Positions 3,717-10,653 of a stretch of 64,000 nucleotides of DNA are shown piece after piece. A model generated the notes under the pieces. That model saw only the letters and a list, made by a program, of their open reading frames with translations, was not told where the DNA came from and did not search any database. Position 1 is the stretch's first letter; the number at the start of each line of letters is the position of its first letter. The translations under genes were made by a program, and so were the position numbers. The DNA lies in contig NZ_RKIJ01000001.1 in assembly GCF_003752595.1 (NCBI RefSeq), positions 1 to 64,000 on the forward strand, written 5' to 3'. This DNA is from Cellulomonas sp. PhB143 (GTDB lineage: Bacteria; Actinomycetota; Actinomycetes; Actinomycetales; Cellulomonadaceae).

Positions 3717-4301
3717 TCAGCCCCGCGCCGCGACCTCCGCGAGGACCAGGGCGAGGCGCTCGCCGAAGTCGTGCGGGACGTCGTCGGGCAGTGCGTCCAC
3801 GCCGAACCACGCGACGTCCTCGCTCTCGTCGCTGACGACCGGGACGGCATCGTGCGGGGCGACGACGACGTAGCCCACGTCCCAGTGCACGCGGCAGCGG
3901 CCGAACGCGCCGGGGAGCGCGTGCCGGTTCAGGTCGGCGGGGTCGCGGCTCCAGGGCACGAGGCCGTCGATGCCGCTCTCCTCCCAGGCCTCGCGGAAGG
4001 CGCCGTCGGCCACGGACGCGTCGTCGCGCTCGACGTGCCCGCCGAGCTGCACCCAGAACTGGCCCTTGCGGTGGAAGCAGAGCAGGACGCGGGAGCGGTC
4101 GGGGCTGAGGACGAAGCAGGATCCGGTGACGTGCTCGGGGCCGCCGTCGCGGCGCAGCGCGGTGTCCTGACCGGGAGCGTCGGCCTCCGACGCGCGGAGC
4201 ATCGCGACGTACTCGTCGCACAGCTCCGCCTGGTCCGGGTCGAGCGGCGACCACTTCTCGAGGGTCGCGGCGAGGTCGGCGGTGCGGGCGGAGAGAGGCA
4301 C
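3717..4301 (-). CDS. NUDIX hydrolase
   Basis: 194 aa. It has a recognisable Nudix box at residues 88-111: GHVERDDASV, then AFREAWEESGI, with the REAWEESG core for divalent metal binding. The box carries a few extra residues between its first Gly and the REXXEE core. The family hydrolyses nucleoside diphosphates linked to another moiety, such as ADP-ribose or dinucleotide polyphosphates; the substrate is not readable here. The start is a GTG without a strong ribosome site. Its neighbour 35 bases away on the other strand is a macrodomain protein, which makes ADP-ribose-type substrates plausible. Confidence 0.88.
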   Translation of the reverse strand: MPLSARTADLAATLEKWSPLDPDQAELCDEYVAMLRASEADAPGQDTALRRDGGPEHVTGSCFVLSPDRSRVLLCFHRKGQFWVQLGGHVERDDASVADGAFREAWEESGIDGLVPWSRDPADLNRHALPGAFGRCRVHWDVGYVVVAPHDAVPVVSDESEDVAWFGVDALPDDVPHDFGERLALVLAEVAARG

Positions 4302-4336
4302 GGGCGTGAGCCTAGCGACGGTCGTACGGTCGGGAG

Positions 4337-4876
4337 ATGACCCCCACGGACGAGACCCGCATCCGCGCCGAGCGCGGCGACCTCACCACGGTCGCGGTGG
4401 ACGCGGTAGTCAACGCCGCGAACTCGAGCCTGCTCGGCGGCGGCGGCGTGGACGGCGCCATCCACGCCGCTGCCGGCCCGCACCTGCTGGAGGCGTGCCG
4501 CGAGCTGCGCCGCACCTCGCTCCCCGACGGGCTCGCGGTGGGCGACGCCGTCGCGACGCCCGGGTTCGAGCTCCCGGCCCGGTGGGTGGTGCACACCGTC
4601 GGGCCGAACCGGCACCGCGGCGAGACCGACCCCGCTCTGCTCGCGTCCTGCTTCACTCGCTCCCTCGACGTCGCCGCCGAGGTCGGGGCGCTGATCGTCG
4701 CCTTCCCGGCCGTCAGCGCCGGCGTCTACGGGTGGGCGCCCGAGTCCGTCGCCCGGGTCGCCGTCGACGCCGTCCGCCGGTGGGTCGGCGCCCACCCGGA
4801 CGCGGTCGACGAGGTGCGCTTCGTACTGTTCTCCGACGCGCTCCAGGAGGCGTTCGCGGAGGCGCTCGCGGGCTGA
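4337..4876 (+). CDS. macrodomain protein, likely O-acetyl-ADP-ribose deacetylase
   Basis: 179 aa. Strong macrodomain signature: GDLT with the adenine-contacting Asp15, VNAANSSLLGGGGVDGAIH with Asn26/Asn29 and Asp39, then PAVSAGVYGW for the phosphate-binding loop. These match the MacroD/YmdB branch, which removes the acetyl group from O-acetyl-ADP-ribose and can reverse mono-ADP-ribosylation. It is cytosolic with no extra domains. It is divergent from a NUDIX hydrolase, so both may act on ADP-ribose products; the link is inference from position. Confidence 0.9.
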   Translation: MTPTDETRIRAERGDLTTVAVDAVVNAANSSLLGGGGVDGAIHAAAGPHLLEACRELRRTSLPDGLAVGDAVATPGFELPARWVVHTVGPNRHRGETDPALLASCFTRSLDVAAEVGALIVAFPAVSAGVYGWAPESVARVAVDAVRRWVGAHPDAVDEVRFVLFSDALQEAFAEALAG

Positions 4877-4978: not shown

Positions 4979-6643
4979 ATGACACACCACGGTTGGGTCC
5001 CGGTCGTCGGGGCCGACGCCTTCACCCCTCAGGCGCTCGTCTCGCCGTTCGGCCGGCTGTTCTCGCCCCACGCCCACGAGTACACGAGCTACTGTCTCTC
5101 CCTCCTCGCCGGGGCGCTGGGCCCCATGCAGGAGGCCGAGCCCGCGCCGGCGCAGCCGGAGGCGCAGACGAACCCCGCCGGGTTCACCTTCCTCGGGCAG
5201 TTCATCGACCACGACCTCACGGAGTTCCGGGTCGTCGGGCAGGACTACGCCGTCATGCAGCAGAACCCGACGATCTCCCAGCGCCAGCGCGTCCTGGAGG
5301 ACACGCCGCTCGCCCCCGAAGGGCTGCGCTCGATGACGACGACGAACGGCCGCACCGGGCGCCTCGACCTCGACTCCGTCTACGGGCTGCTCGGCACCCC
5401 GCAGGCCGACCTCTTCGACGAGCACGGGATGTTCCGCATCGTCGACACCCCGAACGGCCCGGACCTGCACCGCGGGCCCCAGCACGCCAACGGCCGCCTT
5501 GTCGCCGACCCGCGCAACGACGAGAACAAGCTCGTCGTGCAGATCCACCTGCTCTTCGAGCACCTGCACAACCAGCTGCACGCCGCCCACGCGGGGGCGT
5601 CTCCCGAGCAGGCCGGGCCCACCGGTCCGCTGTTCCGCCAGACGCGGGACGCCGTCGTCGGCGCCTACCAGCGCATCGTGCTGCACGACTACCTGCCGCG
5701 GATCGTCCAGGGCGGGCACATCGACGCTGTCCTCGCGGCGCTCGCGGACCGCACCACCTGCTACCAGCGGATGAACTCCCGCTGCCGGGCGGCGCTGACG
5801 GGTCTCGGGATGCCCGACGACGTCGTGGCCGCCACGGTCGCGATGCCCGTCGAGTTCTCGCACGCGGTCTTCCGCCTCGGTCACTCGCAGCTGCGCGACG
5901 GCTACCTGCTGCGCACGGGGGCCGGCGCGCGGCTGTTCGCGACGGAGACGGAGCCGCACGACCTGCGCGGGAACTCTCCGGGGAGCGACGGGTTCGACTT
6001 CCACGTGGACTGGAAGCACTTCTTCCGCCGCACGAGCACGCCGCCGCAGCACGGGCGGCGCATCGACGGGCTGCTCCCGCGGTCCGTCTTCCGCCTCCCG
6101 CCGCCCTCGATCGGCGAGCCGCCCGTGTCCCTCGCCGAGCGCAACCTGCGCCGCGGCGTCGACTTCGGGCTGCCCACGGGTCAGGAGGCCGCGGCCGAGC
6201 TCGCCGCCGTCTACGGGTACGTGCCCCAGGTCGGCAGCGACGTGCTCTTCCCCGCCCCCGTCTTCGGCTCGCGGCCGGAGGTGCTGGACCTCGCGGCGAA
6301 CCTGCAGTGGCAGACGCCGCTCTGGTACTACGTGCTCAAGGAGTCGGAGGCGTTCGGCGGCGGGCCGCAGCTCGGGGCGGTCGGCGGCCTGGTGGTCGCC
6401 GAGACGATCATCGGCTCGATCGTCGAGAGCCGGCTGCAGGCCGCCGCCGCGGCGCCCGGGCCGGGCGGGTTCGACCGGGAGGCCGAGACGGTGGCGATCG
6501 TCGCGGAGATCCAGGCGGAGCGGGCCGCGCTGTCGCCGGACGGCAAGGACCGGGCGAGCGGACCGCTGCGGTACACGGCCCCCGCGCCGGCGTCGGTCGA
6601 GGAGGTGCGGACCATGAGCCAGCTGGTGCGGTTCGTGGTGTGA
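4979..6643 (+). CDS. animal-type haem peroxidase (cytosolic)
   Basis: 554 aa with no signal peptide. It carries the catalytic signature of the peroxidase-cyclooxygenase superfamily. QFIDHDLT holds the distal His78 with Gln74 and Asp77. DPRNDE holds the distal Arg179 and Glu182, the latter equivalent to the haem-linked Glu. VFRLGHS holds the proximal His302 preceded by Arg299. These line up in order with mammalian myeloperoxidase. The family uses hydrogen peroxide to oxidise halides or organic substrates; bacterial members are known but uncommon. A GGAG site precedes the ATG. It appears to be a single-gene unit. The natural substrate is unknown. Confidence 0.9.
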   Translation: MTHHGWVPVVGADAFTPQALVSPFGRLFSPHAHEYTSYCLSLLAGALGPMQEAEPAPAQPEAQTNPAGFTFLGQFIDHDLTEFRVVGQDYAVMQQNPTISQRQRVLEDTPLAPEGLRSMTTTNGRTGRLDLDSVYGLLGTPQADLFDEHGMFRIVDTPNGPDLHRGPQHANGRLVADPRNDENKLVVQIHLLFEHLHNQLHAAHAGASPEQAGPTGPLFRQTRDAVVGAYQRIVLHDYLPRIVQGGHIDAVLAALADRTTCYQRMNSRCRAALTGLGMPDDVVAATVAMPVEFSHAVFRLGHSQLRDGYLLRTGAGARLFATETEPHDLRGNSPGSDGFDFHVDWKHFFRRTSTPPQHGRRIDGLLPRSVFRLPPPSIGEPPVSLAERNLRRGVDFGLPTGQEAAAELAAVYGYVPQVGSDVLFPAPVFGSRPEVLDLAANLQWQTPLWYYVLKESEAFGGGPQLGAVGGLVVAETIIGSIVESRLQAAAAAPGPGGFDREAETVAIVAEIQAERAALSPDGKDRASGPLRYTAPAPASVEEVRTMSQLVRFVV

Positions 6644-6687
6644 CGGCCCGCGCGCCGAGGGGCCTCTGCGGCGTGGGACCCTGAGGT

Positions 6688-7260
6688 ATGGCAGAACAGC
6701 GCGGTTATTGGAACGAGTCCGACGGTTCCGCGGTCGACGCCGCGACGGCGCACGACCGCTGGGCGCAGGACGCGTACGGCGTCCTGACGGAGATCGCCAC
6801 GGAGTACGGCGGCCTGATCACCTACGGCGAGCTCGCGGAGCTCGTCCAGGAGGACAGCGGGATCCGCACCTCCGTCCAGCAGCACCACTGGATCGGCAAG
6901 GTCCTCAGCCGGGTCGTCGCCGAGGCGCACGCGGAGGGCGTCCCGCCGCTGACGGCGCTCGTCGTCCGCAAGGACACGGGCCTGGTCGGCGAGGCGTACG
7001 CGGAGGTCCTGGCGACCGAGGGCGCGCCGGTGCTGGACGACGTCCTCGCGAGCGAGCGGCACGCCGCCGGGGCGCGGCTGCGCTGCTACGAGTACTTCGG
7101 CGCGGACCTGCCGCCCGGCGGCGGGGTGCCCACCCTCGCGCCCGAGTTCGCGGCGAAGGTCGCGCGGCTGCAGCGCACCCGCGAGGTGCCCGTCGGGACC
7201 CCGTGCCCGAACTGCTTCGTGATCATGCCCGCCAGCGGGGTGTGCGACACCTGCGGGTGA
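6688..7260 (+). CDS. unknown protein with C-terminal cysteine-rich tail
   Basis: 190 aa, not recognised. The first half contains a compact helical unit with YGGLITYGELAEL and HHWIGKVLSRVV, resembling a winged-helix DNA-binding core. A PPLTALVVRKDTGLVGEAY segment follows. The last 18 residues are CPNCFVIMPASGVCDTCG, four cysteines that probably bind zinc. Almost the same tail ends the protein two genes downstream (9020-9568), on the other side of the NERD-helicase gene. The start has TGAGGT upstream. Position suggests it works with the nuclease-helicase; the function itself is unknown. Confidence 0.7.
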   Translation: MAEQRGYWNESDGSAVDAATAHDRWAQDAYGVLTEIATEYGGLITYGELAELVQEDSGIRTSVQQHHWIGKVLSRVVAEAHAEGVPPLTALVVRKDTGLVGEAYAEVLATEGAPVLDDVLASERHAAGARLRCYEYFGADLPPGGGVPTLAPEFAAKVARLQRTREVPVGTPCPNCFVIMPASGVCDTCG

Positions 7261-7322
7261 ACTGTCGTCCTTTTCGCGCGGTTCCGGGTCGCGCCGTGGG
7301 TGCCGTCCGGTAGACCGGACCC

Positions 7323-8972
7323 ATGCCTCGTCTCTTCCCGCGTGCGCCGCACTTCCCGGACGACGGCGGGGCCGAGCACTCGGTGTGGCGGGCGCTGCGC
7401 GACCATCTGCCCGACGACGTCGTCGTGCTCAGCGGGGTGGACCTCCAGGACGGCGACGTCGAGCGGGAGATCGACCTGCTCGTCGCGTGGCCGGGGGTCG
7501 GGATCGCCGCGATCGAGGTCAAGGGCGGGTACATCCGCCGCGTCGACGGCGAGTGGCGCCAGGGCAGCGGCGAGCGTGAGCACCGCATCGACCCGGTCGA
7601 CCAGGTCCAGGACGCGCGGCACCGCCTGCAGGGCTACCTGCGCGCCCACGGGTACGGGGCGGGCGCGGCCCGGACCGTGCACCTCGTCGCGTTCCCGCAC
7701 GTCGCCGTCCCGGACACGTGGGGGACCATCGACCTGCCGCGCGCGATGCTCATCGACCGCGCGGACGTGGAGAGCGGCGCGGGCGTCGTCTCGCGGGTGC
7801 GGCACGCCGTCACGCAGCACGGCCAGGGACGTCGCCCTCTCCTGCCCGACGACGTGGAGGAACTGGTCGAGGCGCTCGCCGGGGGCTTCCCCAGCCAGGT
7901 GGACAACCTCGTCGCCGCCTCCATGCACGAGTCGCACTCGGACCAGCTCACGGAGGCGCAGGCGCGGATCCTCGAGGTCCTGGGGCAGCAGCAGCGGATG
8001 CGGGTGATCGGCGGTGCCGGCTCCGGCAAGACGTGGCTCGCGCTGGAGCAGGCGCGCCGGCGTGCGAAGGCGGGGGAGCGCGTCGCGCTGCTGTGCTACT
8101 CGCGCGGCCTCGGCCGCTACCTCCAGCGCGTGGTCGACACCTGGCCGCGGCGCGAGCGGCCCGTGTTCGTCGGGCTCTTCCACGACCTGCCCGTCGAGTG
8201 GGGCGCGGCGCGCGGGGCCGACGACGACCCGGACCACTGGGAGCGCCGGCTGCCGCTGGCGCTCGCGGAGCTCGCCGCGGCGCGCCCGGCCGCCGAGCTG
8301 TTCGACTCCGTGGTGGTCGACGAGGCGCAGGACTTCGGCGACCTCTGGTGGCCGTCCCTGCTGCGCTGCCTGCGCGACCCCGACGAGGGCGGCCTGTTCG
8401 TCTTCATGGACGATGCCCAGCGCGTGTTCCCGCGCGACGGCCGCGCGCCCATCGAGCTGCCGCCGTTCGTGCTCGACGAGAACCTGCGCTCGACGAAGCA
8501 GATCGCCCAGACGTTCTCCTCGATGGCCGACGCCCGGGTGCGGCCGCGCGGGCTGGACGGACCGCCGGTGCGGATGGTCGACGTGCCGCAGGACGCGGCG
8601 ATCGCCACCGCCGACGACTGCGTGGAGATCCTCGTGGACGAGGGCTGGCCGCCGGGCAGCATCGCGCTGCTCGCCACCGGACGGCGCCACCCGGCGCAGG
8701 TCAACGAGGTCGAGCTCGGCGGGTACCAGGCGTACTGGGACGACTTCCTCACGGGCGACGACGTGTTCTACGGGCACGTGCTCGGGTTCAAGGGGCTCGA
8801 GCGGACCGTCGTCGTGCTGGCGGTCAACGGGTTCCACGACGTCGAGCGGGCCCGCAAGATCCTCTACACCGGGATGTCGCGGGCCCGGTCGCTGCTCGTG
8901 GTGGTCGGGCCGCGGGCGCTGGTCGAGGAGGTCGGCGGCGAGGGCATGCGGCGGAGGTTGGCGGGTGCGTAG
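7323..8972 (+). CDS. NERD nuclease-related domain fused to UvrD-like SF1 helicase
   Basis: 549 aa. Residues 1-150 form a NERD domain with restriction-like nuclease residues: Glu49-Ile-Asp51, then Glu65-Val-Lys67 (AAIEVKGG). From residue 205 there is a superfamily 1 helicase/ATPase: Walker A GGAGSGKT at 230-237, Walker B VVVDEAQD at 330-337, a DENLRSTKQI motif and a C-terminal YTGMSRARSLL motif VI. It should be an ATP-driven nucleic-acid motor coupled to a nuclease. Such proteins occur as general repair-like factors and in phage-defence islands. It sits between two small proteins that share a zinc-type tail, all on one strand with short gaps. Confidence 0.88.
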   Translation: MPRLFPRAPHFPDDGGAEHSVWRALRDHLPDDVVVLSGVDLQDGDVEREIDLLVAWPGVGIAAIEVKGGYIRRVDGEWRQGSGEREHRIDPVDQVQDARHRLQGYLRAHGYGAGAARTVHLVAFPHVAVPDTWGTIDLPRAMLIDRADVESGAGVVSRVRHAVTQHGQGRRPLLPDDVEELVEALAGGFPSQVDNLVAASMHESHSDQLTEAQARILEVLGQQQRMRVIGGAGSGKTWLALEQARRRAKAGERVALLCYSRGLGRYLQRVVDTWPRRERPVFVGLFHDLPVEWGAARGADDDPDHWERRLPLALAELAAARPAAELFDSVVVDEAQDFGDLWWPSLLRCLRDPDEGGLFVFMDDAQRVFPRDGRAPIELPPFVLDENLRSTKQIAQTFSSMADARVRPRGLDGPPVRMVDVPQDAAIATADDCVEILVDEGWPPGSIALLATGRRHPAQVNEVELGGYQAYWDDFLTGDDVFYGHVLGFKGLERTVVVLAVNGFHDVERARKILYTGMSRARSLLVVVGPRALVEEVGGEGMRRRLAGA

Positions 8973-9019
8973 GGCGTTGTCCTTGGCACATCGAAGCGTG
9001 GATCCGGCCGGAGGACCAA

Positions 9020-9568
9020 GTGGAATCTGAGGACGAGGTCGTCGTCGGGACGACGCTGTACCGGGTGAGCCCGTCGGGACGCCTACATATCCCCGGGTGT
9101 AGTCACCTGCAGGTGACGGACCGGGACAAGCTGGTCGAGGCGTCGCCGGAGGATCGCGCCCGCCTCGAGCTGTGCAGCGAGTGTGGCGACGAGATCCGCG
9201 GGGTCGGGCGTCGAACCTTTGCGAGTCTCGACGCGGCGCTCGAAGCGCTGCCTCTGGCGGTGGAGAACCGACCGCGGGTGCGCGAGATCGTGCGGGACGT
9301 CGAGCACTCTCGGGTGTGGATCCCGAATGGCGGCTCGTACGTCGCACTCGGGTACACGGACGGGCGTCCAGCTGCCGCGTACGTCAACCGGGGTTTCGTC
9401 GACGTGCGCGACGAGAGTCTCTCGCCGCCGTACGAGCGACATGAGCTACCGAATTTCGCTGGGCGTGGAATCGGCGGGGCGGCTGGCCGGGCCGAGAGGC
9501 CGACGGCGACCTGTCCCCAGTGCCACATGTCGCTGCCGGCGAGTGGCGTGTGCGAGTGCTCGGAGTGA
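9020..9568 (+). CDS. unknown protein with two cysteine-rich metal-binding-like motifs
   Basis: About 182 aa from a GTG with GGAGG five bases before it. The N-terminal part has HIPGCSHL followed by LCSECGDE, a likely His/Cys zinc site. The middle is a small alpha/beta region of no recognised family. The tail is CPQCHMSLPASGVCECSE, nearly matching CPNCFVIMPASGVCDTCG of the protein at 6688-7260. It follows the NERD-helicase gene by 47 bases on the same strand. Base composition is lower in GC than the helicase gene. Function unknown; the shared tail suggests a common partner. Confidence 0.68.
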   Translation: MESEDEVVVGTTLYRVSPSGRLHIPGCSHLQVTDRDKLVEASPEDRARLELCSECGDEIRGVGRRTFASLDAALEALPLAVENRPRVREIVRDVEHSRVWIPNGGSYVALGYTDGRPAAAYVNRGFVDVRDESLSPPYERHELPNFAGRGIGGAAGRAERPTATCPQCHMSLPASGVCECSE

Positions 9569-9598
9569 GGGCGGGCGCGCTGTTCGCTTTGCTACAAG

Positions 9599-9617
9599 TA
9601 CAGTTATATTAACTGTA
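9599..9617. repeat. AT-rich palindrome between convergent genes
   Basis: TACAGTTA, a TAT spacer, then TAACTGTA: a perfect 8-bp inverted repeat. It is very AT-rich in a GC-rich setting and lies between the stops at 9568 and 9624. It could be a weak bidirectional terminator, a regulator site, or a scar of insertion. The low GC argues against a strong intrinsic terminator. Confidence 0.6.
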
Positions 9618-9623
9618 TCTATA

Positions 9624-10517
9624 CTAGTGAGTCCGGGCGACGAATCGTTCGTATCGCCAGGACAGCAGTTCGCGGTCGGGCCGGTCTGAGCGTTTACGCG
9701 GCAGTTTCAGGAACCGCCCATGCATCTCCTGGAGCCCGTGCTTGAGCATGGGCCCGTCGATCTCCGCGAGCAGGTCGAGCGCGATATCCACCCGGTGGTC
9801 GGCGGTGATGCCGAGCATGTTCTGGTCGTACGCGCTGTGGTGGATCTTGCAGAGCGCCAGCCCATTGGTCGTCGTCGGGACCCCAGCCTCCTCGGAATCC
9901 GGGACGATGTGCGCCGCGTCGAGGAGTGCGCCGTGCTTCAGTTCGCAGATGGCGCACCGCGTCTCGTACGCGACGAGGACCCGTGTGCGGAACGCCGGCT
10001 GGTGGAGGCGCTGCTTCGCGAGCCTGAGCGCATACTCGCGCTGCGGCTGGGTGAGATGCCGGACGTCGGGCACGAACGTGAACGACTCGTCGAGGGCGAT
10101 GAGAAACATGCTGTTCTCCGGCTCGTCGTCGACGACATATACCGGCGCGACCGGTGTGTAGATGTTCGCGACCTCTTTGCGGAAGAGGATCAGCGGTTGA
10201 CCGGTCGTCATCGCATGACGCAGCTTGCGGTTGTCGCCGGACCACGGGTCTCCGCTGCGGTATGCGTAGTGCAGGAGGCCGTCGTCCGCCTCGGTGTCGT
10301 CGTACGGTCCGTTCGCTGTGCTGACGATCGAGAGGGTGGAAGCAAAGGCGCTGGGGTTGCGGATTCCCCGCGAGTAGTCGATGACGGGAATCTTCTGCCC
10401 GTCGATGTGGAAGTCGAGCAGCTCGTCGCGCCGCAGGAATCCGCCGTTGGCCTCGGCGCGCTGATGGACCCAGTCGATGATGCGAAGGCGAAGCGCTGCT
10501 TCGAGTGCGGAGTCCAC
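9624..10517 (-). CDS. HNH endonuclease with SRA-like N-terminal region
   Basis: About 297 aa from the GTG at 10517. The C-terminal third is an HNH nuclease: CAIC at 188-191, DAAHIVP with His203, NGLAL with Asn218, and CKIHHSAYD with His226/227. The N-terminal half has SRA/YDG-like landmarks in order: GIRNP, TLSIVS, GPYDD, LLHYAYR, DNRKLRHA, PLILF. That layout suggests a McrA-like, modification-dependent restriction enzyme; this is inference from pattern, not alignment. A longer reading from an ATG at 10631 adds 38 residues of no protein-like character, so I prefer the shorter start, though neither has a good ribosome site. GC is lower than in surrounding genes. Confidence 0.78.
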   Translation of the reverse strand: MDSALEAALRLRIIDWVHQRAEANGGFLRRDELLDFHIDGQKIPVIDYSRGIRNPSAFASTLSIVSTANGPYDDTEADDGLLHYAYRSGDPWSGDNRKLRHAMTTGQPLILFRKEVANIYTPVAPVYVVDDEPENSMFLIALDESFTFVPDVRHLTQPQREYALRLAKQRLHQPAFRTRVLVAYETRCAICELKHGALLDAAHIVPDSEEAGVPTTTNGLALCKIHHSAYDQNMLGITADHRVDIALDLLAEIDGPMLKHGLQEMHGRFLKLPRKRSDRPDRELLSWRYERFVARTH

Positions 10518-10653
10518 GGTCGAAGCTGACCAGACGAGTGCCAGGGGTGCAACGCAGGGGAGAGGTGAAAAGGCGTCCGTGCTGGCTTGCGCCCTACTGA
10601 CGACCCAGTAAGTTCGGCGTGTCCGGTTCATCCCTCAACGGTGAGGAAGTTCC

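What the first reader, a model, noticed from the sequence alone, without database searches (positions are those of the whole stretch)
6688..9568. NERD-helicase flanked by two proteins sharing a cysteine-rich tail
The proteins before (6688-7260) and after (9020-9568) the nuclease-helicase end in CPNCFVIMPASGVCDTCG and CPQCHMSLPASGVCECSE. The rest of the two proteins is unrelated. A common zinc-type tail on two flanking partners suggests a shared docking signal to the helicase or to one nucleic-acid structure. I do not know this three-gene arrangement as a named system.
Basis: partly seen in the sequence, partly recalled or inferred. Interest (0 to 1): 0.68.

Follow-up and report, generated by a model that had tools for sequence, protein, structure and literature searches.

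The report
Shared zinc-knuckle tail, not helicase system
Two unrelated small bacterial proteins beside a DNA helicase end in the same short, probably zinc-binding tail, but in related bacteria that tail is an exchangeable end-piece found on several kinds of small proteins, nearly always far from the helicase.

Summary
P1 (6688-7260) and P3 (9020-9568) flank a NERD/SF1 helicase (7323-8972). They share only a 26-column C-terminal tail (hhalign 96.9%, E 1.4e-10), and their bodies do not align. The tail is a four-ligand knuckle, CPxCFxxLPx[TS]GxCDxC. In 63 distinct detected copies the ligands are CCCC (59) or CHCC (4); in 72 of 72 proteins it ends within 5 residues of the C-terminus. These are the only two strong copies in this genome.

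The three-gene system fails. Of 198 genomes of the order, 47 carry the tail (E<=1e-6), 38 the helicase and 15 both. Only the query has a strong tail copy within 10 kb of the helicase. One other genome has a P3-like gene with a weak tail 4.5 kb away. A congener with a 73% helicase has no P1 or P3.

The tail also sits on ScoMcrA "head" domains and at least two other bodies. P1's body is modelled as a winged helix resembling alkylguanine transferases, without their catalytic cysteine. I read the tail as an uncatalogued, exchangeable C-terminal zinc knuckle on small, probably nucleic-acid-binding, stand-alone proteins.

The parts
6688..7260 (+). P1: 190-aa protein; body modelled as a winged helix (alkylguanine-transferase-like, no catalytic PCHR), linker, C-terminal zinc-knuckle tail
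7192..7257 (+). tail of P1 (CPNCFVIMPASGVCDTCG and the residues just before it)
   Evidence: tail profile match 7192-7254, E 4.6e-9
7323..8972 (+). NERD nuclease-SF1 (UvrD-type) helicase; stand-alone in relatives, not an established partner of P1 or P3
9020..9568 (+). P3: 182-aa protein (GTG start); Cys/His-rich N-terminus that many relatives lack, RTYF..EAAL..P body, linker, C-terminal tail; GC 0.69
9500..9565 (+). tail of P3 (CPQCHMSLPASGVCECSE and the residues just before it)
   Evidence: tail profile match 9500-9559, E 9.3e-9

Best explanation
The locus holds three independent genes that have come to lie side by side in this lineage. P1 and P3 each carry the same kind of C-terminal zinc knuckle (CPxCFxxLPx[TS]GxCDxC), joined by a linker, often Ala/Pro/Arg-rich, to unrelated bodies. 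Shown: the tail is a C-terminal, exchangeable module on at least five kinds of small protein in this order of actinobacteria (one kind seen in a single genome), and in the genomes sampled it is not linked to the helicase. Inferred: the four ligands bind one zinc ion; the body recognises nucleic acid (P1 through an alkyltransferase-like winged helix without the catalytic Cys); and the knuckle gives a second contact, either with DNA/RNA or with a common protein partner encoded elsewhere. The NERD helicase acts on its own as a nuclease-helicase, probably in DNA processing or defence.
For: Tail-only similarity of P1 and P3. Tail on P1-type, P3-type, ScoMcrA-head-type (one member tested: 5zmm, E 5.6e-12), L168-type and L159/L210-type bodies. 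63 distinct ends with four ligands; best match within 5 residues of the C-terminus in 72 of 72 proteins. The P1 body without the tail in a Gordonia phage protein. Helicase and strong tail adjacent in 1 of 15 genomes that hold both, the query; 0 of 71 other loci with both. No neighbour of P1 or of the helicase conserved beyond close relatives; the query's own neighbours and two from G116 are not conserved at 15 helicase loci. Congeners lack the arrangement. P1 and helicase GC 0.740/0.744 with GC3 0.97, against P3 0.690 with GC3 0.81. P1 model mean pLDDT 91.4; 11 of the 12 top VIA-align rows are alkylguanine transferases (Z 5.1-5.4, rmsd 2.9-4.0 over 80-90 residues).
Against: In this genome the only two strong tail copies do flank the helicase (about 0.0014 for proximity). 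Tail and helicase co-occur slightly more than chance (15 of 198, Fisher p 0.018, no correction for phylogeny). G051 has a P3-like gene with a weak tail 4.5 kb from a helicase. All three genes lie on one strand with 62 and 47 bp gaps, and a consensus scan found no terminator-like site (nor a promoter-like one) in 6600-9700, so they could be co-transcribed. For P1 the Z of 5.4 is in the range that the tool says may mean only a common arrangement, Foldseek gave nothing at E<=0.001, and hhalign against the alkyltransferase domain reached only 44.5% and 24.0% over 26 columns. The overall GC of P3 is only about one standard deviation below the window's called genes (0.722, sd 0.033). Zinc binding is not measured.
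Confidence: 0.62

Rival explanations
1. A three-gene nuclease-helicase system: P1 and P3 are accessory sensors that dock on the NERD helicase, or on the structure it acts on, through the common tail.
For: Same strand, short gaps, no terminator-like site found; the only two strong tails of the genome flank the helicase; weak co-occurrence; G051 has a P3-like gene 4.5 kb from a helicase.
Against: 11 genomes of the order hold a P1 body and a helicase, and only the query has them adjacent (coordinates). Congener G116 has the helicase at 73% but no P1 or P3 match in its genome. Most tail genomes (32 of 47) have no helicase at E<=1e-30. GC3 of P3 differs from the other two.
Confidence: 0.07
2. The tail is a general recruitment module: one common partner, encoded elsewhere, is brought to different nucleic-acid targets by different tail-bearing bodies.
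For: A C-terminal tail with a conserved LPx[TS]G loop between the ligand pairs (50 of 63 distinct ends) on at least five unrelated bodies, a stronger constraint than mere folding of a zinc site seems to need (inference); tail genes cluster within genomes (7 of 12 multi-copy genomes, query included, have a pair within 55 kb against 0.59 expected).
Against: No common partner has been identified. Four of the seven clustered genomes have same-family pairs that look like duplications (G103, G091, G161, G059). P1 loci have no neighbour conserved beyond close relatives.
Confidence: 0.2
3. The tail is only a structural C-terminal cap or a stability element, spread by duplication and fusion, with no partner.
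For: Small, at the extreme C-terminus, after low-complexity linkers; minimal zinc ribbons are common on bacterial proteins (general knowledge).
Against: The linker seems to separate the tail from the body, so it is unlikely to cap the fold (inference from sequence); the loop between the ligands is conserved in sequence.
Confidence: 0.2

Closest known systems
Minimal zinc ribbons of Pfam (for example DZR, DZR_2, UPF0547, Zn_ribbon_HMPTM)
   Same: CPxC ... CxxC ligand pairs in about 20 residues (ligand pattern of these models recalled, not looked up)
   Different: No Pfam model reaches its cut-off on P1, P3 or nine other tail proteins. 20 of 23 tails scanned alone gave 13 scattered families, best E 0.0013, the commonest in 5 tails at best E 0.075 (cut-offs not printed for most of these rows). 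The tail has a conserved LPx[TS]G loop and lies at the very C-terminus
ScoMcrA N-terminal head domain (5zmm; PADLOC mREase_IV)
   Same: A third group of tail carriers has this domain (one member, L131, tested: PDB E 5.6e-12; PADLOC E 2.1e-13; eight others grouped with it by reading)
   Different: Those proteins have head plus tail only (about 140-150 aa where the start is clear), without the sulfur-binding, SRA and HNH parts that a paper lists for ScoMcrA (PMC7461809, passages seen). P1 and P3 do not match it
O6-alkylguanine-DNA alkyltransferases and alkyltransferase-like proteins
   Same: The P1 model resembles their winged-helix domain
   Different: No P[C/W/A]HR motif in 23 of 23 P1 sequences; sequence link weak
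PADLOC RTasNERD-Hel (helicase filed under DRT) and C3a187 NERD+UvrD
   Same: The helicase matches RTasNERD-Hel along nearly its whole length (E 2e-34, residues 1-528)
   Different: No reverse transcriptase (PF00078) found in the own genome, so it is not that system here

Membership tests
Three-gene NERD-helicase system (the finding) | P1, helicase and P3 adjacent in other genomes | tested here: not met
   All three together in 1 of 198 genomes of the order, the query itself; P3-like plus helicase 4.5 kb apart in G051
Three-gene NERD-helicase system (the finding) | Tail specific to partners of the helicase | tested here: not met
   32 of 47 tail genomes have no helicase at E<=1e-30; of the 15 with both, strong tail copies are adjacent only in the query
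C-terminal four-ligand zinc knuckle | Four metal ligands conserved | tested here: met
   63 of 63 distinct ends detected by the tail profile, CCCC 59 and CHCC 4; L180 (CHIH...CDMC) and L155 were not detected and not counted
C-terminal four-ligand zinc knuckle | Binds zinc | not testable with these tools
   needs metal analysis of purified protein
Alkyltransferase / alkyltransferase-like | Winged-helix DNA-binding domain of that fold | tested here: inconclusive
   VIA Z 5.4, rmsd 3.2 over 86 residues; Foldseek no match at E<=0.001; hhalign 44.5% and 24.0%
Alkyltransferase | PCHR active site | tested here: not met
   0 of 23
DRT system with NERD helicase | Reverse transcriptase gene | tested here: not met
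   0 matches of PF00078 in the own genome; control search found it in 3 of 14 genomes
ScoMcrA head domain (for P1 or P3) | Sequence match to 5zmm head | tested here: not met
   profiles of P1 and P3 do not find 5zmm at E<=1; another tail group does

The most novel reading that the evidence does not exclude
The tail is a common plug: an uncatalogued actinobacterial C-terminal zinc knuckle that couples different DNA-recognition bodies (alkyltransferase-like winged helix, ScoMcrA head, others) to one shared effector, giving a modular sensing or defence network of small stand-alone genes.
Probability: 0.17. Interest if true: 0.68.

Novelty: new variant of a known kind. Interest (0 to 1): 0.36.

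Why it matters
It removes a tempting but unsupported helicase system and replaces it with a testable object: a short C-terminal zinc knuckle, with only weak matches to the Pfam and NCBIfam models scanned, that is shared by several unrelated families of small proteins in actinobacteria, one of which uses the head domain of a modification-dependent restriction enzyme. If the tail binds one common partner, a pull-down with any tail would reveal it.

Tried and rejected
Considered and rejected: a sortase signal (the loop reads LPxTG in 31 of 63 distinct ends, but I see no membrane segment or charged end behind it; this is from reading the sequence and general knowledge). A link to the biotin synthase auxiliary protein BsaP: one of 15 P1 homologues matched NF052237 at E 0.0022, but none of 20 tails matched any NCBIfam model at E<=1. 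Of the P1 homologues I rescanned five of 15 singly, and it did not recur in them; I did not find out which member matched. A TadA model (NF008113) matched three of 15 P1 homologues weakly (best E 0.0053); not pursued. DRT membership of the helicase. A conserved NUDIX/macro neighbour of the helicase: NUDIX in 1 of 15 and macro in 2 of 15 helicase loci.

Led nowhere: relatives of P1 or P3 in viral contigs; P3 in plasmids and phages; the tail as a DNA pattern in viral contigs (0 hits). The single-sequence model of P3 has mean pLDDT 50.8 and was not used for a fold search. Plasmids gave three P1 relatives, with no helicase among the genes listed around them (that gene table is incomplete). Literature: four literal tail strings gave 0 papers; searches on NERD helicases, zinc-ribbon tails, ScoMcrA, BsaP and alkyltransferase-like proteins listed nothing on this tail by title or start of abstract. 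I saw only those listings, and passages of PMC7461809. A weak AbiEi-like hit of one P3 relative (E 0.0096) was not pursued.
Full report
OBSERVATION. P1 (190 aa) ends CPNCFVIMPASGVCDTCG and P3 (182 aa, GTG start at 9020) ends CPQCHMSLPASGVCECSE. The middle gene is an intact-looking NERD nuclease-SF1 helicase. P1 has no Pfam match at E<=1 and P3 only one far below cut-off. Comparing the P1 and P3 family profiles aligns only 26 columns, the tail (Prob 96.9, E 1.4e-10), and the two bodies do not align. In the own genome (3.2 Mb, 17 contigs) a tail profile finds these two strongly; its other two matches at E<=1 are weak.

THE TAIL IS WIDER THAN THIS LOCUS. A profile of 23 tails was run on 198 genomes of the order. 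166 of 198 have a match at E<=1, mostly noise to judge by the short, low-scoring rows. At E<=1e-6 there are 62 places in 47 genomes (counted from the rows). In 198 genomes drawn from the phylum only 5, the query included, reach E<=1e-6, so among those sampled it is concentrated in this order. In the fetched loci 72 tail proteins were detected, and in all 72 the best match ends 0-5 residues from the C-terminus. They have 63 distinct ends: ligands CCCC in 59 and CHCC in 4, loop LPxTG or LPxSG in 50 of 63. These were found by the tail profile (E<=0.001, or 0.01 for one batch), so divergent tails such as those of L180 and L155 are not counted. The Cys to His swap at ligand 2 argues for a metal site.

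WHAT CARRIES IT. (1) P1-type: 24 of 198 genomes have the body (34 at E<=0.001, of which 9 match little more than the tail and linker and one, G111, is a weak partial hit). (2) P3-type: 16 of 198 (19, of which 3 are tail-only). Many P3 relatives lack the Cys/His-rich N-terminus. (3) A ScoMcrA head domain, in nine loci of the query's family, one of them in its genus; one member was tested (residues 5-100 match 5zmm, E 5.6e-12; PADLOC mREase_IV E 2.1e-13). (4) The L168 type, seen only in congener G116, with a weak PADLOC PD-T4-3 match (E 4.1e-4). (5) Small Cys-rich proteins of the L159/L210/L211 kind and the possibly related L212/L215 kind. L213 and L214 look like distant P3 bodies by eye only. 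A Gordonia phage protein (seven phage records match) has the P1 body without the tail.

LINK TO THE HELICASE. The helicase is in 38 of 198 genomes at E<=1e-30. 15 hold both a strong tail and the helicase (Fisher p 0.018, uncorrected for kinship). Among those 15 the tail is beside the helicase only in the query; the nearest other is 24 kb (G116), and the rest lie 0.36 Mb or more apart on one contig or on different contigs. Of the 11 genomes with a P1 body and a helicase, only the query has them adjacent. Of 3 with a P3 body and a helicase (G000, G051, G133), the query has them adjacent, G051 has them 4.5 kb apart with other called genes between and a weak tail (E 0.055), and G133 0.78 Mb apart. 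In 71 fetched loci of 11-20 kb (L116-L186, query not among them) 56 had a strong tail, 13 a helicase homologue and none both. Clustering of called neighbours found none that recurs beyond close relatives: at P1 loci the widest is a short-chain-dehydrogenase-like family (named by eye) in 5 of 21, at helicase loci an 80-aa protein in 4 of 13, three of those from one genus. P3 loci are different: in the genus g16, ABC-transporter-like genes lie beside P3 (families in 11, 8 and 7 of 16 loci); that reflects synteny inside that genus, and its relevance to the query is unknown. The query's own neighbours, and two from G116, do not recur at 15 helicase loci (at most 2 of 15).

HISTORY OF THE LOCUS. 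Congener G116 has the helicase at 73% identity but no P1 or P3 match in its genome. G392 keeps the neighbouring peroxidase at 88% and a helicase remnant, with no P1 or P3 in the 19 kb around it. G391 has neither helicase nor peroxidase; P1 and P3 were not searched there. P1 and helicase have GC 0.740 and 0.744 with GC3 0.97. P3 and the next gene, an HNH nuclease, have 0.690 and 0.651 with GC3 0.81 and 0.86, and the GC dip runs from about 8.9 to 11.5 kb. P3's GC3 would rank second lowest against the 51 called genes of the window (median 0.956), though its overall GC is only about one standard deviation below their mean. P3 may have come in separately; this is suggestive only.

MECHANISM. The P1 model (15 sequences, mean pLDDT 91.4) is mainly helical with a winged-helix-like match. 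Eleven of the twelve best VIA-align rows are alkylguanine transferases (several entries of the human protein and its SNAP-tag form, plus that of M. tuberculosis; Z 5.1-5.4), the other being topoisomerase VI A. The tool warns that such Z can mean only a common arrangement. Foldseek alone gave no match at E<=0.001, and hhalign to the transferase domain is weak (44.5% and 24.0% over 26 columns). None of 23 P1 sequences has the PCHR site. I infer a non-catalytic DNA-binding winged helix, tethered by a linker to a zinc knuckle. Whether the knuckle touches nucleic acid or a protein partner is open. Tail genes do cluster in genomes: 7 of 12 multi-copy genomes, query included, have a pair within 55 kb against 0.59 expected. 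Four of the seven have same-family pairs (G103, G091, G161, G059); the pairs of the query, G045 and G173 are of different families. The simulation treats positions as uniform and uses rounded genome sizes.

VERDICT. Real shared tail; no three-gene helicase system. It is best filed as a new variant of the minimal zinc ribbon, used as an exchangeable C-terminal end-piece. Where cut-offs were printed, no Pfam or NCBIfam model reached its cut-off on P1, P3 or other tail proteins; scans of alignments gave only weak hits (best E 0.0013 in Pfam, 0.0022 in NCBIfam). The papers searched list nothing on this tail by title or start of abstract.

Noticed in passing
window 4979-6643: Animal haem peroxidase family protein (PF03098, E 9.1e-13) upstream of P1; 88% identical copy in congener G392, no match in G116 and G391.
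   Followed up: partly
window 9624-10631 (-): HNH_2 nuclease gene (PF13391) in a low-GC stretch (0.65) that runs on from P3; may be recently acquired.
   Followed up: partly
L191 (G392:C1:1646000-1665000), about 8646-8861: Remnant of the NERD helicase (54% over residues 468-541) in a congener that keeps the peroxidase: the helicase seems to have been lost there.
   Followed up: yes
L128-L132, L169-L172: Small proteins made of a ScoMcrA head domain plus the zinc tail, without sulfur-binding, SRA or HNH parts; possible nuclease-free readers of DNA modification (one member tested).
   Followed up: partly
L196 2944-3393 (Gordonia phage ChisanaKitsune gp75): Phage protein with the P1 body but no tail (30% identity, E 3e-3).
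   Followed up: no
window 3717-4876: NUDIX-like and macro-domain-like genes (named from sequence by eye) close to the helicase; a relative of the first lies beside the helicase in G116, and macro-like genes lie near the P3-like gene in G051.
   Followed up: partly
G103, G091, G161, G045, G173, G059: Tail-bearing genes cluster within genomes more than uniform placement predicts (7 of 12 multi-copy genomes within 55 kb, query included; 0.59 expected).
   Followed up: partly
L157-L167 (genus g16): In one genus P3-type genes lie beside ABC-transporter-like genes (families in 11, 8 and 7 of 16 P3 loci), possibly one transcription unit.
   Followed up: no
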